A DNA stretch of 22,139 bases from a virus, in IMG/VR virus record IMGVR_UViG_3300007512_000225, positions 1 through 22,139 of that record; one strand, written 5' to 3'. The position numbers were made by a program, and so were the translations under genes. The first letter of the stretch is position 1, and each line of letters begins with the position of its first letter. Positions 10,153 through 19,636 of this stretch are shown piece by piece. The notes beneath the pieces were generated by a model, which worked only from the letters and a program-made list of their open reading frames with translations, was not told where the DNA came from and did not search any database.

Positions 10153-10809
10153 ATGGTACAAACAGTAACCCAAGGTGGAACTGGTGAAAATCAGGGAAAT
10201 GTTATTACAGATACCGCTACAGGTGTAACATATTCTGGAGCAATTGAATATAATATTTCTGGTCAAGGTGGACTCGAACTCAATGCCCAGTCTCGTCAAC
10301 CAAAAACAACAAATCAACTTCTTCCTACATCTTATAAATTTGTTCTAGGGAGAGCCCCTCATTTAACCTTTTTCTGTCAATCATTAAGTCTTCCCACAAT
10401 ATCAATTGATTCTATCACACAAGATTCCCCATTTAGTGATATTCATATGCCTGGCGGCAAAGCATCATTTGAAAACTTGACATTAAATTTTGTTGTAGAT
10501 GAAAAGATGGCAAACTGGTTGGAAATATATCATTGGATGACATCTATAACTCCTACCGACCAACTATCGGTTAGAAACGAAAGTAAGAAAACAGGTATGG
10601 TACGAACGGCCGATAGATTTTCTGATTTGTCTGTTGTAGTGACAACAAATCAATCAAACGGACAGATTGTTATCGATTTTAAAAATGCATTCCCCATAAG
10701 TCTGGGTGAAATAGAATTTAGTAGTGTTGATACTACATCAGACCCCGTTACATCCAATGTTTCGTTTCAGTACGATACATATTCTGTAACAACTCTTTCA
10801 GGATATTGA
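10153..10809 (+). CDS. Tail-tube-fold protein, gp3 position (tail completion candidate)
   Basis: A 218-residue protein. After a Gly/Thr-rich N-terminus of about 55 residues comes LLPTSYKFVLGRAPHLTFF, CQSLSLPTISIDSI, a PGGKASFENLTLNFVVDE block and WLEIYHWM, then a C-terminal beta section. This is the layout of the gp19/gp54-type tube fold: strand, SLPTIS loop, strand pair, helix. Related marine phages carry gene 3 (tail completion, sheath stabiliser) between 23 and uvsY, so gp3 or a tube-initiator-like protein is the likely role. I cannot separate the two. The start ATG 10153 follows GGAGAT at 10141. The gene sits between the gp23 terminator and the uvsY promoter, so it needs its own promoter; none of the exact late type is seen in the 35 bases available. 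Confidence 0.6.
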   Translation: MVQTVTQGGTGENQGNVITDTATGVTYSGAIEYNISGQGGLELNAQSRQPKTTNQLLPTSYKFVLGRAPHLTFFCQSLSLPTISIDSITQDSPFSDIHMPGGKASFENLTLNFVVDEKMANWLEIYHWMTSITPTDQLSVRNESKKTGMVRTADRFSDLSVVVTTNQSNGQIVIDFKNAFPISLGEIEFSSVDTTSDPVTSNVSFQYDTYSVTTLSGY

Positions 10810-10837
10810 TTGACATTCCACTTTTTTGTGGTATAAT
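10810..10837 (+). promoter_or_regulatory. Sigma70-type early promoter for uvsY
   Basis: TTGACA (10810-10815), a 16-base spacer, then TATAAT (10832-10837), with a TGG just before it (extended -10). Both hexamers are perfect consensus. The -35 begins directly after the stop codon of the upstream gene. Counting from the -10, transcription would start at about 10844, which is the A of the uvsY ATG. A short dyad, CCAC (10818-10821) and GTGG (10828-10831), lies in the spacer. The spacer end TTTTTTGTGG resembles two other promoters in this window. Confidence 0.9.
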
Positions 10838-10843
10838 TTGTTT

Positions 10844-11278
10844 ATGGATTTAAAAGAAATAATGAATCAGGCTGAACGGGACTTGCAAGTAGACCCAACC
10901 GAACTGGATATTGCATCGTTAAATATCCCACAATTACATAATAAGTACCTCAATTACCTACGCAATGAAACTATGGTATACAAACGCCTTAGGGCGGACT
11001 ACAAGCGCTTATACAGGGTCAAATGGGAGTACTACACCGGCAAGTTAGACGAAGAAACCCTGAAAGAATTGGGCTGGGAACCGTTTCAATTACACATCCT
11101 CAAACAAGATATAGACAAATATTTAGATTCGGATGATGATTTAATTACTTCTAGTTCTAAAATGGACTATTGTGAAGAGAAGATTAAACATCTCGAAGAA
11201 ATTCTTAAAAATATTAACAATCTCCAATGGAATATCAAAAATGCAATTGAATGGAAAAAGTTTGTGAGTGGCCAATGA
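10844..11278 (+). CDS. uvsY: UvsY recombination mediator
   Basis: UvsY loads the UvsX recombinase on single-stranded DNA coated with gp32. It has 144 residues (T4 has 137). The N-terminus MDLKEIMNQAERDLQVDPTE lines up without gaps with the start of T4 UvsY, so ATG 10844 is the conserved start; an upstream TTG is inside the promoter. The middle is lysine/tyrosine-rich and helical (RLYRVKWEYYTGK), and the C-terminal helix ends with AIEWKKF, as in the family. No ribosome site precedes the ATG and the promoter predicts transcription starting at the ATG itself, so the mRNA may be leaderless. The stop overlaps the next gene by four bases (ATGA). Confidence 0.9.
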   Translation: MDLKEIMNQAERDLQVDPTELDIASLNIPQLHNKYLNYLRNETMVYKRLRADYKRLYRVKWEYYTGKLDEETLKELGWEPFQLHILKQDIDKYLDSDDDLITSSSKMDYCEEKIKHLEEILKNINNLQWNIKNAIEWKKFVSGQ

Positions 11279-11787
11279 GTGAATCTTTCGATCCTATGGA
11301 TAGGGTATATCTCACCGAAGCATACAAATATGCAAGAGATAAAAGTCAAGACCCCGTAACGCAAGTTGGTTGTGTATTAGTTTCACCCGCAGAGGGTGTG
11401 GTTACATATGCAACAAATACCTTTACACATGGTATTAATCCAACAAAATCTATGTTTGAACGACCCGAAAAGTATGAGTACTTTGAACATGCAGAAAGAA
11501 ATGCTATTTATAGATGTGCATTAAAGGGGTTTTCAACTTCTGGGTTAATCATGTATTGTCCTTGGTGGTGTTGCGCTGAATGTGCTAGGGGAATTGTTCA
11601 AAGCGGTATTTCTAAATTTGTAGGCCATCATTTAATGTACGAACTTGCCACAAATAGATGGAAAGAAAGTATCGATAGAGGCCTAGAATTAATGAATGCT
11701 GCTGGAATTGATGTAGTAAATTGGGATGGTCGAATTGAGAGAAAAGACATTAAAGTTCTTTTTGACGGAGAATCCATCATTCCATAG
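11275..11787 (+). CDS. dCMP deaminase-like zinc deaminase
   Basis: The family makes dUMP from dCMP for dTTP synthesis. The 170-residue protein has the deaminase signature: HAERNAI with zinc ligand H72 and proton-shuttle E74, then MYCPWWCCAEC with zinc ligands C100 and C103, then GIVQSGI. The usual proline of PCxxC is replaced by Cys (C99), but the zinc Cys pair is intact, so the enzyme should be active. ATG 11275 overlaps the uvsY stop as ATGA; an ATG at 11251 would give a longer overlap and is less likely. The gene lies between uvsY and uvsW. In T4 the deaminase gene cd is elsewhere. Substrate could be dCMP or a modified deoxycytidylate; the family call is firm, the exact substrate is inferred. 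Confidence 0.85.
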   Translation: MSESFDPMDRVYLTEAYKYARDKSQDPVTQVGCVLVSPAEGVVTYATNTFTHGINPTKSMFERPEKYEYFEHAERNAIYRCALKGFSTSGLIMYCPWWCCAECARGIVQSGISKFVGHHLMYELATNRWKESIDRGLELMNAAGIDVVNWDGRIERKDIKVLFDGESIIP

Positions 11788-11795
11788 CATAAATA
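11788..11795 (+). promoter_or_regulatory. Possible variant late promoter (CATAAATA) for uvsW
   Basis: CATAAATA, one base off the late consensus, directly follows the deaminase stop and precedes the uvsW ATG at 11804. In T4, uvsW is a late gene, which makes a late promoter here plausible. Initiation would be within a few bases of the ATG, so the transcript would have almost no leader. Confidence 0.4.
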
Positions 11796-11803
11796 CTAAT
11801 GGA

Positions 11804-13303
11804 ATGAATGATTTGGTAATACAACCCGTTGATTCAGTCAACATAAGAGTTAACTGTGAACGAGGGCTTGCAAAAGAGCTTTCGGATTTCTTCACATTTA
11901 AAGTTCCTGGCCATGAATATATGCCCGCATTTAGAAATAAGATGTGGGACGGCCAGATTAAACTCTATAATGTACACAGTCAAAGAATATACGCAGGACT
12001 TCTGGACTATGTTGTTAAGTTTGCTAAAGACAGAAACTACTCTTGCGAAGTAGACCCAGACCTACAACTAAATGATAGACAAAACGACTTCGGTGAATTT
12101 ATTGATTCACTTGATATCCGTATATCTGATAAACCAGTTTCACCACATAAACACCAATCTATGGCTTTTGAGTATGCAGTAAACAGCGAAAGATGTTTAT
12201 TACTTTCACCCACTGGATCAGGAAAGTCTTTAATAATTTACATGTTGATGAGATATTACCTTGAACATATTGAATCGAACAAAAAGGTATTGATAGTCGT
12301 ACCAACAACATCACTTGTAACCCAAATGTATAATGACTTTGCAGATTATAGTTCCCAATCAGATTGGGATGTAGAGAAAAACTGTCACAAAGTATTTGCT
12401 GGCAGAGAGAAACTTATTAAAAAGAAAAGGGTGGTTATCTCAACATGGCAAAGTATTTACAAATTACCAAAAACTTATTTCAACGAATTTTCAATGGTTG
12501 TCGGGGACGAATGCCATCTGTTCAAAGCCAAATCTTTGACAAACATTATGTCCAAACTAGAAGAGTGCCCGTACCGATTCGGCACAACAGGAACACTGGA
12601 CGGAACTCAAACCCACAAACTCGTAATCGAAGGTCTATTCGGGCCGATATTTAAAGTAACAACTACTAAAAAATTAATTGAAAAAGACCTTCTTAGTGAC
12701 TTTTCTATAGATTGTATCCTGTTAAAATATCCAGAATACATACGCAACGAAATTAAAAGGTCTACATATCAAGGGGAGATAGATTATCTTCTTTCAAATA
12801 CTAAGAGAAATGATTTTATTTGTAATCTCTGTAATAAGTTAAAGGGGAATACATTAGTATTATTTCAGTTTGTTTCAAAACACGGTAAACCATTATGTAA
12901 AACAATGGAACACAAGTGTAAAAATCGAAATATATTTTTCGTGTACGGAGGGACTGATATTGAAGTTAGAGAAAAGATTCGTCAAATTACAGAGAAAGAA
13001 TCTAACGCAATTATAATTGCTTCATACGGAACTTTTAGTACAGGAATTTCGATAAAAAGACTACACAATATCGTGTTTTCTTCACCATCAAAAAGTAGGA
13101 TTAGAGTCTTACAAAGTATAGGAAGGCAACTAAGAAAGTCAGAACACAAAGATAAAGCAAAACTATATGATATCGCAGATGATCTTCATTGGAAAAAATG
13201 GAATAATCATACATTGCGACACGCATATGAACGACTTAAGATATACAAATCTGAAAAATTTGAATACCGTGTAGTACCAATAAATCTTTATTCGGAAGGA
13301 TAA
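11804..13303 (+). CDS. uvsW: UvsW RNA-DNA and DNA helicase
   Basis: UvsW is a superfamily 2 helicase that unwinds R-loops at origins, reverses forks and moves branches, switching T4 replication from origin-dependent to recombination-dependent. From ATG 11804 it has 499 residues (T4 has 503). The N-terminus aligns well with T4 UvsW through RVNCERG, DFFTFKVPG and MWDGQIKLY. Walker A SPTGSGKS is at 135-142, motif II DECH at 235-238, then GTTGTLDG (motif III), ASYGTFSTGISIKRLHN (motif V) and QSIGRQLRK (motif VI). The frame is open further upstream to ATG 11726, but that would overlap the deaminase by 62 bases and add residues not found in T4. No good ribosome site precedes 11804. Confidence 0.94.
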   Translation: MNDLVIQPVDSVNIRVNCERGLAKELSDFFTFKVPGHEYMPAFRNKMWDGQIKLYNVHSQRIYAGLLDYVVKFAKDRNYSCEVDPDLQLNDRQNDFGEFIDSLDIRISDKPVSPHKHQSMAFEYAVNSERCLLLSPTGSGKSLIIYMLMRYYLEHIESNKKVLIVVPTTSLVTQMYNDFADYSSQSDWDVEKNCHKVFAGREKLIKKKRVVISTWQSIYKLPKTYFNEFSMVVGDECHLFKAKSLTNIMSKLEECPYRFGTTGTLDGTQTHKLVIEGLFGPIFKVTTTKKLIEKDLLSDFSIDCILLKYPEYIRNEIKRSTYQGEIDYLLSNTKRNDFICNLCNKLKGNTLVLFQFVSKHGKPLCKTMEHKCKNRNIFFVYGGTDIEVREKIRQITEKESNAIIIASYGTFSTGISIKRLHNIVFSSPSKSRIRVLQSIGRQLRKSEHKDKAKLYDIADDLHWKKWNNHTLRHAYERLKIYKSEKFEYRVVPINLYSEG

Positions 13304-13306
13304 GAC

Positions 13307-13939
13307 ATGAAAAAGGGCCCAGTAATATTTCGACTATTATCAGGAGAAAGCGTAATCGGAAATCTAGTTTCCGAAAACGATAAAGAATATACTGTAAATA
13401 GACCATATTCAATTAATGCATTTATGATGGGTGAAAACCCCATGAATTCAAAGGAATTTATATTCCTTCGAGATTGGTTGAAATTTTCAATAGATTTATC
13501 TACAACTATAGAAAAGAACCGTGTTTTACACACCAGTACTGCCGATCCAAAAATTACAGAAATGTATGAACGCAGAATGAATCATGACGATGCTCCCGGC
13601 CTTTTCAAAGAAAATGAAATCTCAAAAATGGTTGAAGATGCCATGAATAACTTCTCAGAAGCAGATTTATCAGAACTTTTAGAAGATATAAAAAATCAAG
13701 AGGGAGACATAATGGATGAAGCTTCAATCATGGAAAAATTGAATAAATTACAATTGCCAATTACTGAAGATTTTTTAAATGATTTAATGACATTGATTGA
13801 TGCACACACCGATGAAACACAAACAATCACTCAAGATGATTGGGACTTTGATGACGATTGCCCAGAAAAATTTGATGACCCCGATGAATTCGGAAATCAT
13901 TATGGACATTGGCCAATCGACCCCAAAGATTATCTCTAG
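13307..13939 (+). CDS. Hypothetical protein with Sm-like N-terminus
   Basis: A 210-residue protein starting three bases after the uvsW stop. The N-terminal part PVIFRLLSGESVIGNLVSEN followed by EYTVNRPYSI has the beta-strand rhythm of an LSm/Sm-like barrel (a strand, SGE turn, V-I-G-x-V strand, then a V-x-x-P strand). Related marine phages carry small proteins with this opening. The middle is acidic and helical (residues about 105-170). The C-terminal 35 residues (DDWDFDDDCPEKF..., GNHYGHWPID) are very acidic with a distinctive aromatic-rich tail. An RNA-binding role is possible but is inferred only from fold-like pattern. It is probably co-transcribed with uvsW. The gene could also be a scaffold or inhibitor; function is unknown. 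Confidence 0.75.
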   Translation: MKKGPVIFRLLSGESVIGNLVSENDKEYTVNRPYSINAFMMGENPMNSKEFIFLRDWLKFSIDLSTTIEKNRVLHTSTADPKITEMYERRMNHDDAPGLFKENEISKMVEDAMNNFSEADLSELLEDIKNQEGDIMDEASIMEKLNKLQLPITEDFLNDLMTLIDAHTDETQTITQDDWDFDDDCPEKFDDPDEFGNHYGHWPIDPKDYL

Positions 13940-14036
13940 CCTTAAGGCTGGCAACCTATTTAAATCTACAAACGGCTACAATGAGATAATACCATTGGCA
14001 AGCCACAAAGCAAGAACAAAATTCAAAATTAAATAA
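13902..14036 (+). CDS. Small overlapping ORF, doubtful
   Basis: A 44-codon frame (ATG 13902, stop 14034-14036) begins inside the end of the Sm-like gene in the +1 frame and fills most of the following gap. The segment LKAGNLFKSTNGYNEII reads like real protein and vaguely resembles the first strands of Hint-type domains, but no conserved Cys or downstream His block is present. There is no ribosome site. It could be a decayed fragment, a frameshift extension of the upstream protein, or chance. Confidence 0.2.
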   Translation: MDIGQSTPKIISSLKAGNLFKSTNGYNEIIPLASHKARTKFKIK

Positions 14037-14042
14037 AAAAAC

Positions 14043-14070
14043 TTGACATAGTACATTTTTGGTGTATACT
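14043..14070 (+). promoter_or_regulatory. Sigma70-type early promoter for gp55
   Basis: TTGACA (14043-14048), 16-base spacer, TATACT (14065-14070). The spacer end ATTTTTGGTG resembles the uvsY and clamp-operon promoters. Start of transcription is expected near 14077, giving a leader of about 26 bases with a strong ribosome site. It drives the late sigma factor and, through coupled genes, 47, 46, the lysine-rich gene and RNase H. Confidence 0.88.
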
Positions 14071-14074
14071 ATGT
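14046..14074 (+). repeat. Inverted repeat across the gp55 promoter
   Basis: ACATAGTA (14046-14053) and TACTATGT (14067-14074) are perfect 8-bp inverted arms separated by 13 bases. The left arm overlaps the -35 and the right arm covers the -10. Lying upstream of the expected start, it cannot act as an RNA hairpin of this transcript and is better placed to be an operator for a dimeric DNA-binding protein. Confidence 0.6.
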
Positions 14075-14095
14075 GATATGGAAGGAGGTTCTAGA

Positions 14096-14110
14096 ATGAA
14101 TCATGGCTAA
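14096..14110 (+). promoter_or_regulatory. Four-codon leader frame (MNHG) overlapping the gp55 start
   Basis: ATG 14096 starts the frame M-N-H-G and stops with TAA at 14108-14110. It is seven bases from the AAGGAGG site, the ideal distance, whereas the gp55 ATG at 14103 is fourteen bases away. The gp55 start lies inside this minigene, and an in-frame TGA at 14097-14099 rules out a longer gp55. Initiation on the minigene could compete with, or feed by reinitiation, gp55 translation. Confidence 0.45.
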
Positions 14111-14657
14111 AAAGAAAGTAAATCATTATATTGATAATAAAGAATTTTATGCGGCAATGAAACAATGGAAAGAACAAGTAAAAAATGCTGAGGCACAAGG
14201 GGAAGATAAACCTCCTGTTACCGAATATATTGGAAAATGTTTTGTTGACATTGCAACAAATTTGGCTTGGCGACCAAACTTTATAAATTATCCCTATCGA
14301 GAAGAAATGATAGGGGATGGAATCGAAAACTGTTTAATGTATTGCAGTAATTTCGACCCTGATAAATCTAAAAATCCATTTTCATATTTTACTCAAATAA
14401 TTTATTATGCATTCCTGCGTAGAATTCAAAAAGAAAAGAAACAAAATTACATCAAATACAAAATGATGGAAATAACCGATATTGACGGTTCAATTAAAGA
14501 AAATTTAAAGGTCAGAACAAATAGCGATAATCCAATTGCAGACATGATGAGATTGTCTCCAACAGATATTGAAAAGTTCGAACCAAAGAAAAAGAAAACT
14601 AAAAAAAAGCAAGGAAGCCTAGACGAGTTTTTAGATAATGAAGATAGCACTGATTAA
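14103..14657 (+). CDS. 55: Late sigma factor gp55
   Basis: gp55 directs host RNA polymerase to TATAAATA late promoters, with the sliding clamp gp45 as activator. It has 184 residues (T4 has 185). The order of blocks matches T4: NHYIDNKEFYAAMKQWK at the N-terminus, then YREEMIGDGIENCLMYCSNFD, NPFSYFTQIIYYAFLRRIQKEKKQ (sigma region 2-like), and a basic stretch KKKKTKKK before the C-terminus. The tail QGSLDEFL (170-177) corresponds to the T4 SLDFLYE clamp-binding tail and also fits the Q-x-x-L-x-x-F-L pattern of clamp-binding peptides. The start is fixed by an in-frame stop just upstream. Its last 20 bases overlap the start of gp47. Confidence 0.93.
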   Translation: MAKKKVNHYIDNKEFYAAMKQWKEQVKNAEAQGEDKPPVTEYIGKCFVDIATNLAWRPNFINYPYREEMIGDGIENCLMYCSNFDPDKSKNPFSYFTQIIYYAFLRRIQKEKKQNYIKYKMMEITDIDGSIKENLKVRTNSDNPIADMMRLSPTDIEKFEPKKKKTKKKQGSLDEFLDNEDSTD

Positions 14658-15702
14658 TGACACGCACTTTGGGGCTCGAGCGGACTCCCAAATATTTGCA
14701 GATTACTTCTTTCAGTTTTTTGAAGAAACCTTCTTTCCCTACATCCAAGAGAATAAAATAGACGCTATTTTTCACTTGGGCGATTTGATGGACAGAAGGA
14801 AATTTGTAAATTTCAATACACTTAATAATACCAGAAAAAGATTTCTAGAACCGTTAGAAGATATCGGTATAGAAACTCATATTATTCTTGGTAATCACGA
14901 TACCTATTACAAAAATACTAACGAACTAAATTCTGTTCGTGAATTGTTAGGTAACCGTTACAAAAACTTTAATATCATCGAAACACCACAAGAACTGTGG
15001 TTAGATAAAGAAGGTTTTGTTATGGTTCCGTGGATAAATAAATCAAACAAAGACAAGTGTTTAAAGTTATTGGACTCTACGGCATGTCCTATTGCTGTGG
15101 GTCATTTTGAATTAAATGGTTATGAAATTGTGCCCGGCATTAGACATGATGGTGGGATGGATGATAAACCGTTAAAACGATTTGAACAAGTTTGGTCTGG
15201 ACACTTTCATCAAAAGAGCAATAAAGATAACATTTATTATTTGGGAGCCCAGTATCAAATTACTTTTACGGATTTAAATGTCCGAAAGGGATTTCATGTT
15301 TTTGATACAGAAACTAGAACTCTTGAATTTATTGAAAACCCATTACGGATGTTTCATGCTATCGATTATGATGATAGTGAATCAGAAAAAATCGAAGATT
15401 GGATTAAGTCCGGCGATTTCAAAAAATATAAAAATGGGCAAGTTAAAGTTTTTGTAAGATATAAAAGAAGTCCTTATTTGTTTGACAGGTTCTTAGATAA
15501 ACTGTATAATGCACAAGTAGGCAATCTCACAATTATTGAAGACATAATTCAACAAGAAATTGATGATGAGGATGTTATTGACATGTCCAAGGATACACTG
15601 ACACTTATTCTGAATGAGATTGATACAATGGAAGAAATTGAAAACACAGGAAAGTTGAAGAAGATAATTAAAGACCTGTACACGGAGAGTCTTTCACAGT
15701 GA
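14638..15702 (+). CDS. 47: Recombination endonuclease subunit gp47 (Mre11/SbcD type)
   Basis: gp47 is the nuclease half of the gp46/gp47 complex that resects DNA ends for recombination and degrades host DNA. It has 354 residues (T4 has 339). The metallophosphoesterase motifs are complete: D8 and H10 in NDTHFG, D49 in HLGDLMD, N86-H87-D88 in GNHDTYY, H156 in VGHFELNG, and H189/H191 in WSGHFHQKS. ATG 14638 lies within the last codons of gp55 and the N-terminus MKIALINDTHFG begins at the first beta strand, as it should. The C-terminal capping region is charged. The stop overlaps the GTG start of gp46. Confidence 0.96.
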   Translation: MKIALINDTHFGARADSQIFADYFFQFFEETFFPYIQENKIDAIFHLGDLMDRRKFVNFNTLNNTRKRFLEPLEDIGIETHIILGNHDTYYKNTNELNSVRELLGNRYKNFNIIETPQELWLDKEGFVMVPWINKSNKDKCLKLLDSTACPIAVGHFELNGYEIVPGIRHDGGMDDKPLKRFEQVWSGHFHQKSNKDNIYYLGAQYQITFTDLNVRKGFHVFDTETRTLEFIENPLRMFHAIDYDDSESEKIEDWIKSGDFKKYKNGQVKVFVRYKRSPYLFDRFLDKLYNAQVGNLTIIEDIIQQEIDDEDVIDMSKDTLTLILNEIDTMEEIENTGKLKKIIKDLYTESLSQ

Positions 15703-17420
15703 TAAATTTTAAGAAAGTTCGTTTCCGAAACTTTGGTTCATTCGGAAACGCTGTTACAGAAATACAATTAGACCGACATTCTATGACTCTTGTATCAGGG
15801 AATAACGGTCATGGAAAATCTTTTGCATTATTAGATTCTATCACCTTTGGGTTATTTGGAAAACCATTTCGAAAAATTAATATTCCGCAATTGGTTAACA
15901 GTATAAACAAGAAAAACTTGTGGGTGGAAGTAGAGTTTGAAATTGGTGATGATTCATATAAAATTATCAGAGGTATAAAACCCAAGAAATTTGAAATTTA
16001 TCGAAACGGGGAATTATTCGACCAAAATGCCAAGACAAAAGATTATCAGCGAATGTTGGAAGACCAAATTCTAAAAATGAATTATAAGTCTTTTACACAA
16101 GTTGTGATTTTAGGTAGTTCGTCCTTTGTTCCTTTTATGCAATTAAGTACATCAGACCGGCGTGGAGTTATTGAAGATATTCTGGATATCAATATCTTTT
16201 CTGATATGAATACGATTCTTAAAACCCACATATCAACTTGTCGAGAAGAACACAGAGAGATTATATTTAACATCGAAGTTCTAAAAGAAAAAATCGAAAT
16301 ACTAGAATCTCATATCGAAAATGTATCTAAGAAATCAGAACAAAGTTCCGCAGAAAACGAAAAAGAAATATTAGAAACCAAGAAGAAAATTAAAAACCAT
16401 CAAACCAAAATCGAAGACTTGAGATTAACATCAGACCACAAACGAAAAGAAATAAAATCGTATGGTGATTTACAATCAAAGATTCGAAGGGTTGAAGTTC
16501 TAAAGAAACAACTAGGATCAAATAAAAGAAAAGCCGAAGAGGGCATTTTATTCTTTGAAATGAATGAAGTTTGTCCCACCTGTACACAAGATATTGATGA
16601 ATCAAATACCAATGTAATTAAAACTGTTGAACGGAAGAAAGATAAGTTGGTTGAAATTGAAAATGCAATGGAAGAACTTGCTGTTCATTACGAAGAAATA
16701 CAAGAACATTCCATTACAGTAGACAACAAACTTTCTGAAATTACTGCATTGGAAGATGACATTTCTTCTAAGAATGGGTGGGTTAGTGCAGCCGTTGGGT
16801 ATATGGAAAAATTAGTAGAACAAACTGAACTGATTAAAAAAGACCAAGACCAAATCAAAAGTGAAACTGAAAAACTCACAACCTACAAACAAAATATGAA
16901 TATACAACAGGAAGAAAAGAAAGAACGAATTGAAGATTTGTATTATTATGATATTGCCACTTCGTTGTTAAAGGATGGCGGTATCAAATCAAAAATCATT
17001 AAACACTATCTTCCTATGATGAATAAACTCATCAACAAATATTTGGCTTCAATGGACTTCTTTGCTCAATTTACATTAGACGAAGAATTCAATGAAACCA
17101 TCAAGAGCAGACACCGTGACGATTTTAGTTACATGTCATTTAGCGAAGGAGAAAAAATGAGAATTGATTTATCACTTCTTTTGTCATGGCGAGAAATTGC
17201 TAGATTAAAGAATAGTGCAAATACAAATCTTTTAATTCTTGATGAAGTATTTGATTCGTCGCTCGATGCTTTTGGTACAGAAGAATTTTTAAAATTGATA
17301 CATTCTTTAAGTCAAAGATGTAATATATTCGTAATCAGCCACAAATCAGATCAATTGGCTGATAAATTTCCAAACCAAATGACCTTTGAAAAACAAAATA
17401 ATTTCAGCAAAATGTTATGA
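15699..17420 (+). CDS. 46: Recombination endonuclease subunit gp46 (Rad50/SbcC type)
   Basis: gp46 is the ABC-type ATPase partner of gp47. It has 573 residues (T4 has 560). Walker A GNNGHGKS is at 34-41. Long coiled coils run from about 180 to 290 and 300 to 420, with the zinc hook CPTC (C292, C295) between them. The ABC signature SEGEK starts at residue 482, and Walker B LLILDEVFD with D515/E516 follows. The start is GTG at 15699, overlapping the gp47 stop as GTGA, with GGAGAG a few bases upstream. The 4-base overlap should give matched amounts of the two subunits. All parts needed for a working Mre11-Rad50-type complex are present. Confidence 0.96.
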   Translation: MINFKKVRFRNFGSFGNAVTEIQLDRHSMTLVSGNNGHGKSFALLDSITFGLFGKPFRKINIPQLVNSINKKNLWVEVEFEIGDDSYKIIRGIKPKKFEIYRNGELFDQNAKTKDYQRMLEDQILKMNYKSFTQVVILGSSSFVPFMQLSTSDRRGVIEDILDINIFSDMNTILKTHISTCREEHREIIFNIEVLKEKIEILESHIENVSKKSEQSSAENEKEILETKKKIKNHQTKIEDLRLTSDHKRKEIKSYGDLQSKIRRVEVLKKQLGSNKRKAEEGILFFEMNEVCPTCTQDIDESNTNVIKTVERKKDKLVEIENAMEELAVHYEEIQEHSITVDNKLSEITALEDDISSKNGWVSAAVGYMEKLVEQTELIKKDQDQIKSETEKLTTYKQNMNIQQEEKKERIEDLYYYDIATSLLKDGGIKSKIIKHYLPMMNKLINKYLASMDFFAQFTLDEEFNETIKSRHRDDFSYMSFSEGEKMRIDLSLLLSWREIARLKNSANTNLLILDEVFDSSLDAFGTEEFLKLIHSLSQRCNIFVISHKSDQLADKFPNQMTFEKQNNFSKML

Positions 17421-17821
17421 AAAACAAAACCAAGAAAAAGACCAAAAAGAAAGTTCAATCAAAAAAGGTTGAACGAGAGTGGACGAGTGGAGTTTCTCCT
17501 AAGACATCATTATCTTACGAGAAGTATATGAAAGCCGGTCTGGAAATTATCTCTTCGAAATTTTCAATTCGTACATATAAACTAGCACCCAAAGAAGACT
17601 ATCCATTTTTTGAACGGGGGAAAGACCTTCGGGTACGAGTTTTCTTTAATGGAAAATATGTTGAAGGAAGTGAATTTCTAATAGAACTGGCTTTTTGGAT
17701 GCAATCGAATGGCAACAAAGAAGACCGCAATTGGATGCGAAGCCACGCAGACCAAAAACTAAAATGTTTTCATGATGCTGTTCAACGAGGCAAGAAAAAA
17801 CTAAAGAAGAAAAAGAAATGA
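17417..17821 (+). CDS. Lysine-rich hypothetical protein
   Basis: A 134-residue protein I do not recognise. The first 18 residues and the last 10 are nearly all lysine, flanking a neutral core that looks folded (YEKYMKAGLEIISSKFSIRTY, then RVRVFFNGKYVEGSEFLIELAFWM, then helix-like WMRSHADQKLKCFHDAVQ). Basic tails at both ends suggest nucleic-acid binding. It is joined to gp46 upstream and RNase H downstream by ATGA overlaps, so it is made together with end-resection and primer-removal enzymes. The lysine codons are mostly AAA/AAG runs, so slippage in sequencing is possible, but the frame remains open and abuts both neighbours perfectly. Confidence 0.75.
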   Translation: MKNKTKKKTKKKVQSKKVEREWTSGVSPKTSLSYEKYMKAGLEIISSKFSIRTYKLAPKEDYPFFERGKDLRVRVFFNGKYVEGSEFLIELAFWMQSNGNKEDRNWMRSHADQKLKCFHDAVQRGKKKLKKKKK

Positions 17822-18651
17822 TTATTATTGATAACAACCAAATTATTTTAGCAGCTATTTTTACAACCATTCGTAATGGAGAAGTTGATGAAGATATTCT
17901 TAGGCATTTAGTATTGAACACATATCGAATGTATCGAAATAAATTCAAGAATAAGTATGGCGAACTTGTAATTGCAAACGACTCTCCGCATTGTTGGCGA
18001 AGAGATATATTCCCACACTATAAAGCTAGTCGCAGGAAAGACCAAAAAGAATCTAAGTTTGACTGGAATGTAATTTATAAATGTTTGAATACGATTCGTG
18101 AAGAAGTAGAAGAAATATTTCCATTCAAAAACATCACAGTGGACAGAGCAGAAGCAGATGACATTATTGGTATCCTTGCAAAACAATATCATCTGCAAGA
18201 AAATATTGTTATCGTTTCAAACGACAAAGATTTTCAACAATTACAGCGATATCCTAATGTTAAACAATACAGTCCGTTGAAGAAATCGTTTTTGGTTTGT
18301 AGTGACCCCGAACGATTTCTTGTAGACCATATCATAAAGGGTGATGCATCAGATGGTATACCCAACATCCTTTCAGATGATGATGTGTTCGTGACAGAAG
18401 GAAAACGACAAACGGGATGTGGAAATAAAAAGGCAGAAATGATTCGAGAAGAATTACATAAGTGGACAGAAAATAGAAACTATGATAGAAATAATAGGAT
18501 GATTAATCTTAATATGATTCCCTCCTACATAGAAGAAGAAGTACTCTCTCAGTTCAATAAAACTACCGAAACTGATGGAAGTAAAATCCTTTCTTACTTT
18601 ATTGAAAAACGATTGCGGAACCTTATGGAAAACATTCAGGAGTTTGTTTGA
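17818..18651 (+). CDS. rnh: T4-type RNase H (5' to 3' FEN-1-family nuclease)
   Basis: This nuclease removes RNA primers and adjacent DNA from lagging-strand fragments. It has 277 residues (T4 Rnh has 305). Matches to T4 Rnh run through the whole protein: D5 at the end of the first strand, a helix with LRHLVLNTYR, WRRDIFPHYKASRRK, AEADDIIG with E112, D114 and D115, IVSNDKDFQQLQRYPNVKQYSP with D136 and D138, then IKGDASDGIPN with D176 and D179. These are the metal-binding acids of the family. The N-terminus is about 14 residues shorter than T4. The start overlaps the lysine-rich gene by ATGA. In T4 rnh lies elsewhere (dda/33/59/32 region), so its place between 46 and 45 is a different arrangement. 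Confidence 0.93.
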   Translation: MIIIDNNQIILAAIFTTIRNGEVDEDILRHLVLNTYRMYRNKFKNKYGELVIANDSPHCWRRDIFPHYKASRRKDQKESKFDWNVIYKCLNTIREEVEEIFPFKNITVDRAEADDIIGILAKQYHLQENIVIVSNDKDFQQLQRYPNVKQYSPLKKSFLVCSDPERFLVDHIIKGDASDGIPNILSDDDVFVTEGKRQTGCGNKKAEMIREELHKWTENRNYDRNNRMINLNMIPSYIEEEVLSQFNKTTETDGSKILSYFIEKRLRNLMENIQEFV

Positions 18652-18657
18652 TGCCCA

Positions 18658-18699
18658 CACAAATACAAAATAATACACTTGACATCTTGTGTATTTGTG
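18658..18699 (+). repeat. Nested inverted repeats over the clamp-operon promoter
   Basis: Outer arms CACAAATAC (18658-18666) and GTATTTGTG (18691-18699) are a perfect 9-bp inverted repeat. Inner arms AATACAC (18672-18678) and GTGTATT (18689-18695) are a perfect 7-bp inverted repeat that flanks the -35 box. The right arms overlap, so the two pairings are mutually exclusive. They cover the promoter spacer and -35, which suits an operator; as RNA from upstream transcription they could also form alternative hairpins. Confidence 0.6.
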
Positions 18700-18706
18700 G
18701 TAAAAT
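18679..18706 (+). promoter_or_regulatory. Sigma70-type early promoter for the clamp/clamp-loader operon
   Basis: TTGACA (18679-18684), 16-base spacer, TAAAAT (18701-18706), with TGG just before the -10. It shares spacer length and the TTTGTGG end with the uvsY promoter. Transcription is expected to start near 18713, where there is a GTG in frame with the next gene. It should drive the small unknown gene, 45, 44, the GroES-like gene, the DruA-like gene and 62. Confidence 0.85.
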
Positions 18707-18724
18707 ACATGCGTGATATTTGAG

Positions 18725-18943
18725 ATGAGTAAGAAAAACAAAAAAGAAACACACAACGAGTACGAAGATTATTATGATATTAGTTCGGCTCGTAGTCAAA
18801 AGAAAAGTAAGTCCCGAAGAAAGCGGAAGGACACTAAACATATACTTCGAGATTTTAAGGACTATGGAAACAACTTGCGTAGTTCCAAAGACCTCGATGA
18901 TATAAACGATTGGTATGGAGACACCTTAGATAAGGATTGGTGA
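18725..18943 (+). CDS. Small charged protein in the rpbA position
   Basis: A 72-residue protein (from ATG 18725; a GTG at 18713 would add four residues and coincides with the expected transcription start). The first half is strongly basic (KKSKSRRKRKDTKH), then comes RDFKDYGNNLR, and the last 20 residues are acidic with Trp (DDINDWYGDTLDKDW). I do not recognise it. T4 has rpbA, an RNA-polymerase-binding protein, directly before gene 45, and marine T4-like phages have a small basic protein there, so a polymerase- or DNA-binding role is a reasonable guess from position only. It directly abuts gp45 (TGA then ATG). Confidence 0.7.
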   Translation: MSKKNKKETHNEYEDYYDISSARSQKKSKSRRKRKDTKHILRDFKDYGNNLRSSKDLDDINDWYGDTLDKDW

Positions 18944-19636
18944 ATGACTACAACTATGAATACAGTGAAATTGAGTCGAAATACATTCGACATTCTCAAA
19001 AACTTTGCAACAATTAATACGAACCTTCTGGTCGAAACAGGAAATACAATCAAGACATTATCTCCCATGAAAAATATCATGGCAGAAGCAACTGTGTCTG
19101 AAGATTTTGATATTCCGTTTGGCGTTTGGGATTTGAACAAGTTCCTTGGAACTATTTCATTATTTAATAATCCCGAATTGATGTTTGAAGAAAAGTATGT
19201 GACCATCAGTGAAAGCGGTGGTGCATCTGTTCGATATCATTATTCTGACCCATCGCTTTTGTTGTCAGCAACAAAAGAACTTAATATGCCGGAACCTGTT
19301 GTTTCTTTTGAATTAACTCAAAAACAATTCAATGAAATCCAAAAGGCGGCTGCAGTTCTTCAGGTTCCTGATATCTGTGTCCGAAATGACGGCGAGGTTT
19401 TACAACTTGTTGCTCTGGATAAGGCTGACCGTGGCAGTAATAGTTACTCTATTGATTTGGGCGAACTTGGAACAAGTGAGGATTTCGAATTTTACTTCAA
19501 GGTAGAAAATCTTAAAATCCTTCCCGGCGATTATGATGTAAGTATCACAGAAAAGATTGTATCACAATTTAATCACAAATCAATCGATTTGAAGTATTAT
19601 ATTGCTATGGAATCTGATTCTCACTACGGAGAATAA
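18944..19636 (+). CDS. 45: Sliding clamp gp45
   Basis: gp45 is the trimeric ring that tethers the DNA polymerase and also activates late transcription through gp55. It has 230 residues (T4 has 228). VKLSRNTFDILKNFATINTNLL matches the T4 N-terminus. FGVWDLNKFLGTISLFNNPEL corresponds to the first-domain core, and LPGDYDVSI and KYYIAMESDS near the end match the T4 C-terminus. The first ATG (18944) abuts the previous stop; a second ATG at 18956 (MNTVKLS) would be closer to the T4 length at the N-terminus and cannot be excluded. gp44 begins one base after its stop, so clamp and loader are co-translated. The partner peptide QGSLDEFL in gp55 is encoded upstream. Confidence 0.94.
   Translation: MTTTMNTVKLSRNTFDILKNFATINTNLLVETGNTIKTLSPMKNIMAEATVSEDFDIPFGVWDLNKFLGTISLFNNPELMFEEKYVTISESGGASVRYHYSDPSLLLSATKELNMPEPVVSFELTQKQFNEIQKAAAVLQVPDICVRNDGEVLQLVALDKADRGSNSYSIDLGELGTSEDFEFYFKVENLKILPGDYDVSITEKIVSQFNHKSIDLKYYIAMESDSHYGE

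What the first reader, a model, noticed from the sequence alone, without database searches (positions are those of the whole stretch)
10810..18706. Three matching early promoters with TTGACA, 16-base spacer and a shared spacer end
Seen: promoters at 10810-10837, 14043-14070 and 18679-18706 all have perfect TTGACA, exactly 16 bases of spacer, a T-rich TTT(G)TGG or similar end, and TATAAT, TATACT or TAAAAT. They precede uvsY, gp55 and the clamp operon. Inference: they form one early class, distinct from T4 early promoters (GTTTAC type -35), using an unmodified housekeeping sigma factor with a phage-specific spacer signature.
Basis: partly seen in the sequence, partly recalled or inferred. Interest (0 to 1): 0.55.

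Follow-up and report, generated by a model that had tools for sequence, protein, structure and literature searches.

The report
Phage promoters fused to start codons
Three strong bacterial-type promoters in this uncultured T4-like phage are real but of a familiar kind; the surprise is that one of them sits so close to its gene that the messenger RNA should begin at the start codon itself, an arrangement that recurs in many related phages.

Summary
All three sites are as described: TTGACA, 16-base spacer, TATAAT/TATACT/TAAAAT, ahead of uvsY, gp55 and a small ORF before the clamp gene; chance gives 0.16 such matches per window. They are best read as ordinary host sigma-70 promoters. The 'spacer signature' is largely the known extended -10 (TGn), present in two of three sites and in 20 of 34 and 13 of 41 orthologous promoters. 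T4 early promoters use the same sigma factor and elements, so a phage-specific class is not supported.

Of 47 non-redundant uvsY loci, 16 have a promoter 6-8 bases before ATG (shuffles: mean 0.35, maximum 3); for gp55, 11 of 57. Other orthologues carry the promoter further upstream, mostly with a Shine-Dalgarno sequence. The two states interchange at least 10 and 5 times on rough trees. T4 shows no case. IMG/VR scans hint at a wider phage habit. No start site has been mapped.

The parts
10810..10837 (+). Site 1: promoter TTGACA-N16-TATAAT with TGn; the TGA stop of the upstream ORF (10153-10809) ends at the base before it
10844..11278 (+). uvsY; ATG 6 bases after the -10, so at the expected transcription start: predicted leaderless
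   Evidence: PHROG 231, aligned from residue 1; spacing; orthologues
14043..14070 (+). Site 2: promoter TTGACA-N16-TATACT, no TGn, ahead of gp55
14083..14088 (+). Shine-Dalgarno sequence AGGAGG in the predicted gp55 leader
   Evidence: read directly
14103..14657 (+). gp55, late sigma factor
   Evidence: PHROG 234
18679..18706 (+). Site 3: promoter TTGACA-N16-TAAAAT with TGn, ahead of a small ORF and the clamp gene
18713..18943 (+). Small ORF; GTG 18713 lies at the expected transcription start, but homologues in L006 and L007 point to the in-frame ATG 18725
18944..19636 (+). gp45 sliding clamp
   Evidence: PHROG 223
11777..11807 (+). Hairpin downstream of site 1 that holds a late-promoter core (CATAAATA 11788-11795) in its loop and the uvsW ATG (11804) in its stem

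Best explanation
The three sites are promoters for the host's housekeeping sigma factor, placed ahead of the recombination, late-sigma and clamp operons. Host RNA polymerase reads TTGACA and the -10 (helped at sites 1 and 3 by TGn) and starts about 7 bases after the -10. At site 1 that base is the A of the uvsY ATG, so the uvsY mRNA has no leader and must be translated by leaderless initiation on its 5'-terminal AUG. Site 2 gives a leadered mRNA with a Shine-Dalgarno sequence; site 3 gives a 12-base leader or, less likely, a leaderless GUG mRNA. Among relatives the orthologous promoter alternates between fusion to the start codon and a position further upstream, mostly with an SD. Shown: sequences, spacing, recurrence in orthologues, statistics. 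Inferred: promoter activity, start site, early timing, leaderless translation.
For: Offset = bases between the -10 and the start codon. 250 distinct sites with at least 11 of 12 matches in 170 loci plus the window: an ATG opening 50 or more codons stands at offset 6 in 33, at 7 in 12, at 8 in 4, and at 10 or fewer for any other single offset up to 60. Start-defined test: uvsY 16 of 47 and gp55 11 of 57 at offset 6-8, shuffles mean 0.35 and 0.37, maximum 3 each. uvsY has no locus at offsets 10-15: 17 at 6-9, 17 at 16 or more, 13 without promoter. SD-like motif: 13 of 17 uvsY and 24 of 27 gp55 loci with offset 16 or more. All 12 leaderless-type gp55 starts are ATG, against 30 of 45 of the rest, as leaderless initiation in E. 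coli prefers AUG (passage of PMC9031893). UvsY aligns from this methionine. T4 control: 0 at offsets 6-8, 24 at 16-45.
Against: No transcription start is mapped and the host is unknown. Only one of the three sites is a clear case. gp55 has one locus each at offsets 2 and 12. 13 of 47 uvsY and 16 of 57 gp55 loci show no promoter. Of six cultured relatives, none has a promoter at offset 5-9 before uvsY or gp55. The start-codon choice in my script favours ATG. SD absence in leaderless-type loci is forced by geometry. Rows are related, so shuffles overstate independence. In HTVC008M (2 against 6 at 13 control offsets) and P-SSM4 (2 against 4) the signal is near background.
Confidence: 0.8

Rival explanations
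1. One reading: one phage-specific early class marked by a spacer motif and different in kind from T4 early promoters.
For: The three sites share TTGACA, 16 bases and a T-rich spacer end; 16 is the commonest spacer in orthologues, 22 of 34 and 25 of 41.
Against: TGn is missing from site 2 and many orthologues; the -35 varies; 17-base spacers are common. T4 early promoters have -35, TGn and -10 too.
Confidence: 0.1
2. Promoter and start codon are adjacent only because intergenic space is short in a compact genome; uvsY is really translated from read-through transcripts of the upstream gene and the promoter adds little.
For: At site 1 the intergenic stretch is no longer than the promoter; most genes in these contigs lie head to tail on one strand.
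Against: Compactness predicts spread offsets, but they cluster at 6-8 and are empty at 10-15 for uvsY; the -10 leaves no room for an SD, so read-through mRNA would lack one; the spacing recurs with different intervening bases.
Confidence: 0.12
3. The dyads that overlap sites 2 and 3 are operators of a phage repressor, so these are regulated rather than constitutive early promoters.
For: Perfect 8- and 7-bp stems at sites 2 and 3 (shuffle p 0.012 and 0.038).
Against: Site 1 p 0.75; orthologous promoters show no excess (uvsY 4.26 against 4.13, gp55 4.61 against 4.50). The dyads differ in sequence.
Confidence: 0.05

Closest known systems
Bacteriophage T4 early promoters
   Same: Read by host sigma-70 polymerase; -35, TGn and -10 elements (passages of PMC2988021)
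   Different: T4 shows no promoter fused to a start codon in the same scan (0 at offsets 6-8, 24 at 16-45); UP elements were not tested here
Early promoters of marine cyanomyoviruses (S-PM2, Syn9)
   Same: Sigma-70-like motifs before homologues of T4 early genes, no motA or asiA, late NATAAATA (passages of PMC2984593)
   Different: The passages seen do not speak of leaderless mRNAs; P-SSM4 uvsY lacks an abutting promoter
Leaderless phage mRNAs: lambda cI, Thermus phage phiYS40
   Same: mRNA begins at or next to the start codon (cI passage in PMC9031893; phiYS40 middle and late mRNAs, passage in PMC3594737)
   Different: Here replication and late-sigma genes of T4-like phages with full -35/-10 promoters, and orthologues that switch between leaderless and led; start sites not mapped
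-10 box adjacent to the ORF in Deinococcus-Thermus
   Same: -10 next to the start codon, giving leaderless mRNA (PMC12340547, abstract and outline only)
   Different: Bacterial genes there; here phage genes, with a -35
T4 early-off/late-on hairpins (e, soc, 49, I-TevI)
   Same: Start codon in a stem with a late promoter inside, as seen here at uvsW downstream of site 1 (passages of PMC3014915)
   Different: uvsW is not named in that paper's main text, and T4 uvsW has no such core in the 24 bases before ATG

Membership tests
Host sigma-70 promoter | -35 TTGACA, spacer 15-18, -10 TATAAT at more than chance rate | tested here: met
   12, 11 and 11 of 12 matches; 4 strict matches against 0.16; orthologues 34 of 47 and 41 of 57
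Host sigma-70 promoter | Transcribed by the host holoenzyme alone | not testable with these tools
   needs in vitro transcription
T4 middle promoter (MotA box plus -10) | MotA box centred at -30 and MotA/AsiA genes | tested here: not met
   TTGACA stands in the -35 region instead of (a/t)(a/t)TGCTT(t/c)a; MotA, AsiA 0 of 8 fragmentary contigs, T4 control positive
Phage-specific early class with spacer signature | Shared spacer motif beyond TGn at all sites | tested here: not met
   site 2 differs; TGn itself in 20 of 34 and 13 of 41
Leaderless gene | Start codon at the expected +1, 6-8 bases after the -10 | tested here: met
   site 1 offset 6; 16 of 47 uvsY loci
Leaderless gene | Mapped 5' end at the start codon and translation without a leader | not testable with these tools
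   needs 5'-end mapping and reporter assays
Leaderless gene (site 3) | Conserved start codon at +1 | tested here: inconclusive
   GTG at offset 6, but L006 and L007 homologues start at the later ATG
T4 early-off/late-on hairpin (uvsW) | Late-promoter core within a hairpin that takes in the start codon | tested here: met
   window fold -10.9 kcal/mol, z -3.77, ATG in stem; perfect stem of 5 bp or more in 32 of 48 relatives with a core. Effect on expression not testable

The most novel reading that the evidence does not exclude
Fusing a strong host promoter to the start codon is a widespread, selected way for environmental phages to express genes. For the plain pattern, 72 of 120 sampled offset-6 sites open a new frame of at least 50 codons against 27 of 117 at offset 11; the offset-6 proteins of both samples fall into 95 clusters (141 proteins). 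Leaderless initiation would let early phage genes bypass the initiation signals of host mRNAs, and loss or regain of a short SD leader would be an easy evolutionary switch.
Probability: 0.5. Interest if true: 0.7.

Novelty: new variant of a known kind. Interest (0 to 1): 0.5.

Why it matters
Leaderless phage genes are known as single cases and in a Thermus phage, whereas T4-like phages are thought of as Shine-Dalgarno users. If uvsY, gp55 and other genes of marine relatives are leaderless in part of the clade and SD-led in the rest, orthologous genes offer a natural experiment on why phages keep or drop leaders. It also bears on annotation, since start codons without an SD are easily mis-called. 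Cultured marine phages with weaker candidate cases exist (HTVC008M, Melnitz-2), so the idea can be tested.

Tried and rejected
Operator dyads: present at sites 2 and 3 but not in orthologues; rejected as a shared feature. Site at 15482: inside gp47, treated as coding. G001 site at 2802 of the reversed contig: a palindrome followed by T's, read as a terminator. GTG 18713 as a second leaderless case: weakened by homologues. bS21 as a link to leaderless translation: 0 of 8 contigs, present in HTVC008M and Melnitz-2; no link. Host: nearest annotated relatives are all under 60% protein identity; left open. My 'led' class means any promoter outside offsets 5-9, including gp55 loci at offsets 2 and 12; some promoters at 24-45 may be chance. 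The 56 candidates include some inside longer open frames, which I did not count as evidence. Ten literature searches: no title, abstract start or passage that I saw described leaderless genes in marine T4-like phages. Most listed papers were not opened and most subscription journals are not held, so this does not show absence. Start-site mapping in phage Syn9 is recalled; no search listed it.
Full report
OBSERVATION. For TTGACA, 15-18 bases, TAWAMT, the window has 4 matches against 0.16 expected; none of 100 shuffles reaches 4. The extra match at 15482 has a 17-base spacer and lies in the frame of gp47; similar stretches occur in gp47 of relatives. A looser promoter scan finds no clear excess (70 against 62.4, sd 9.3).

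CONTEXT. The window is a virus record of 22,139 bases from IMG/VR. Its genes are those of a T4-like phage: UvsY, a helicase that I take for UvsW, gp55, gp47, gp46, gp45 and gp44. All annotated phages found are below 60% protein identity. A 102,578-base contig (G001) holds the same region with 4 differences in 22,139 bases. In G001 the strict motif occurs 7 times, all on one strand. The other two lie at 1806 and 73278 of the reversed contig: the first has an ORF start 50 bases on, the second was labelled inside a called frame by my simple gene caller and is followed by an ATG behind AAAAAGG. The class is therefore sparse.

WHAT KIND OF PROMOTER. I aligned relatives at the start codon of uvsY and gp55, which avoids choosing loci by their promoter. 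After removal of loci above 90% protein identity, 34 of 47 uvsY and 41 of 57 gp55 loci have a sigma-70 promoter by my score within 48 bases (shuffle means 6.0 and 6.7, maxima 14 and 13). Spacer 16 is commonest (22 of 34; 25 of 41). The -35 is TTGACT in 16 and TTGACA in 11 of 34 uvsY loci. TGn is present in 20 of 34 and 13 of 41. This is a host sigma-70 promoter with an optional extended -10. T4 early promoters are of the same kind (PMC2988021, passages). MotA and AsiA were not found in 8 of 8 relatives, which are fragments, nor in HTVC008M, Melnitz-2 and P-SSM4; T4 was positive. For cyanophages the same absence, and sigma-70-like early motifs, are in print (PMC2984593, passages).

At site 1 the sequence runs: TGA stop of the upstream ORF, TTGACA, 16 bases, TATAAT, TTGTTT, ATG of uvsY. 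Sigma-70 polymerase starts about 7 bases after the -10 (established knowledge, recalled), which is the A of ATG. 'Offset' means the bases between the -10 and the start codon. Over the 170 loci then held and the window, 250 distinct sites have at least 11 of 12 matches; an ATG opening at least 50 codons stands at offset 6 in 33, at 7 in 12, at 8 in 4, and at any other single offset up to 60 in 10 or fewer. In the start-defined test 16 of 47 uvsY loci have offset 6-8 (300 shuffles: mean 0.35, maximum 3) and 11 of 57 gp55 loci (mean 0.37, maximum 3). For uvsY, 17 loci have offset 6-9, none 10-15, 17 have 16 or more and 13 no promoter; gp55 has one locus each at 2 and 12. Of the loci with offset 16 or more, 13 of 17 (uvsY) and 24 of 27 (gp55) have an SD-like motif; of the leaderless type 0 of 17 and 0 of 12, which the -10 in that place forces. 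All 12 leaderless-type gp55 starts are ATG, against 30 of 45 of the rest, although my start choice favours ATG. The bases between -10 and ATG vary while the spacing holds.

THE START CODON. UvsY loci align from this methionine, and in orthologues with a leader (L086, L087, L113 among them) the SD is placed for the same codon. PHROG 231 aligns from residue 1.

SWITCHING. On quick maximum-likelihood trees, leaderless and other promoter positions need at least 10 changes for uvsY (17 and 17 loci) and 5 for gp55 (12 and 29). Branch support was not used, so these are rough. One phage can mix both: L143 and L150 have a led uvsY and a leaderless-type gp55. Other families with repeated leaderless-type starts are a family homologous to the window ORF 17417-17821 (7 members; L012 46% identical over 90 residues), a family of about 370 aa (6; two members tested, PHROG 11903) and one of 155 aa (4; one tested, PHROG 624, 'DNA binding protein').

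CONTROLS. With one fixed script, T4 has 0 candidates at offsets 6-8, 2 at 13 control offsets and 24 at 16-45. The eight relatives together have 17, 11 and 49; one of them, G016, has none at 6-8. HTVC008M has 2, 6 and 10; Melnitz-2 6, 7 and 23; P-SSM4 2, 4 and 15. None of six cultured relatives has a promoter at offset 5-9 before uvsY.

BEYOND THIS GROUP. For the plain pattern both scans hit the limit, but 72 of 120 offset-6 sites open a new frame of at least 50 codons against 27 of 117 at offset 11. The 141 offset-6 proteins of both samples fall into 95 clusters.

SITES 2 AND 3. Site 2 gives a leader with SD AGGAGG. An ATG 7 bases after the -10 opens a 10-codon frame (14078-14110) that overlaps the gp55 start; the nearest relative, L006, lacks this ATG. 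At site 3 GTG lies at offset 6 in frame, but homologues in L006 and L007 begin at the ATG that in the window lies at 18725, and GUG is a poor leaderless start in E. coli (PMC9031893, passage).

DOWNSTREAM OF SITE 1. The uvsW start (ATG 11804) is enclosed in a hairpin with a late-promoter core in its loop (-10.9 kcal/mol, z -3.77). Of 63 non-redundant uvsW starts, 48 have a TA[AC]ATA core within 24 bases of the start; 32 of these have a perfect stem of at least 5 bp nearby, not always the same helix, and 0 of the 15 others. Arms flanking the core pair over 5 bp or more in 22 of 48, against 11% on average when arms are exchanged between sequences (maximum 21% in 200 permutations). This is the anatomy of T4 genes e, soc, 49 and I-TevI, where early read-through RNA is poorly translated and late RNA, begun inside the hairpin, is translated (PMC3014915, passages).

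LIMITS. No RNA data; host unknown; apart from the named isolates all relatives are metagenomic records; rows are related; thresholds were mine; shuffles keep dinucleotides only approximately. Papers were seen as passages, outlines or listings, as stated; none was read whole.

Noticed in passing
11777-11807: Hairpin with a late-promoter core in its loop and the uvsW ATG in its stem, with changing stem sequences in relatives: a likely early-off/late-on switch like that of T4 gene e. Expression not tested.
   Followed up: partly
14078-14110: A 10-codon frame whose ATG would lie at the mRNA 5' end overlaps the gp55 start; L070, L135 and L149 also have an ATG 5 bases after the -10 before gp55, L006 does not.
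   Followed up: partly
15482-15510: Perfect TTGACA-N17-TATAAT inside gp47; similar stretches in gp47 of L006, G009, G014, probably set by the protein.
   Followed up: partly
L105, L108, L112, L113, L114, L118, L132, L137, L140 (minus strand): A recurring TTGACA-N16-TATAAT promoter on the opposite strand near uvsW, followed by a shared TTCTCTGTGCC-like stretch; perhaps a small RNA or a divergent gene.
   Followed up: no
HTVC008M record 76441-76476; Melnitz-2 record 8383, 25978, 66590: Candidate leaderless genes in cultured phages, with weaker promoters; the first is annotated as endonuclease V.
   Followed up: partly
G001 reversed, about 2802: Long palindrome TTGACACCCC...GGGGTGTCAA followed by T's, likely a terminator that mimics a promoter.
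   Followed up: no
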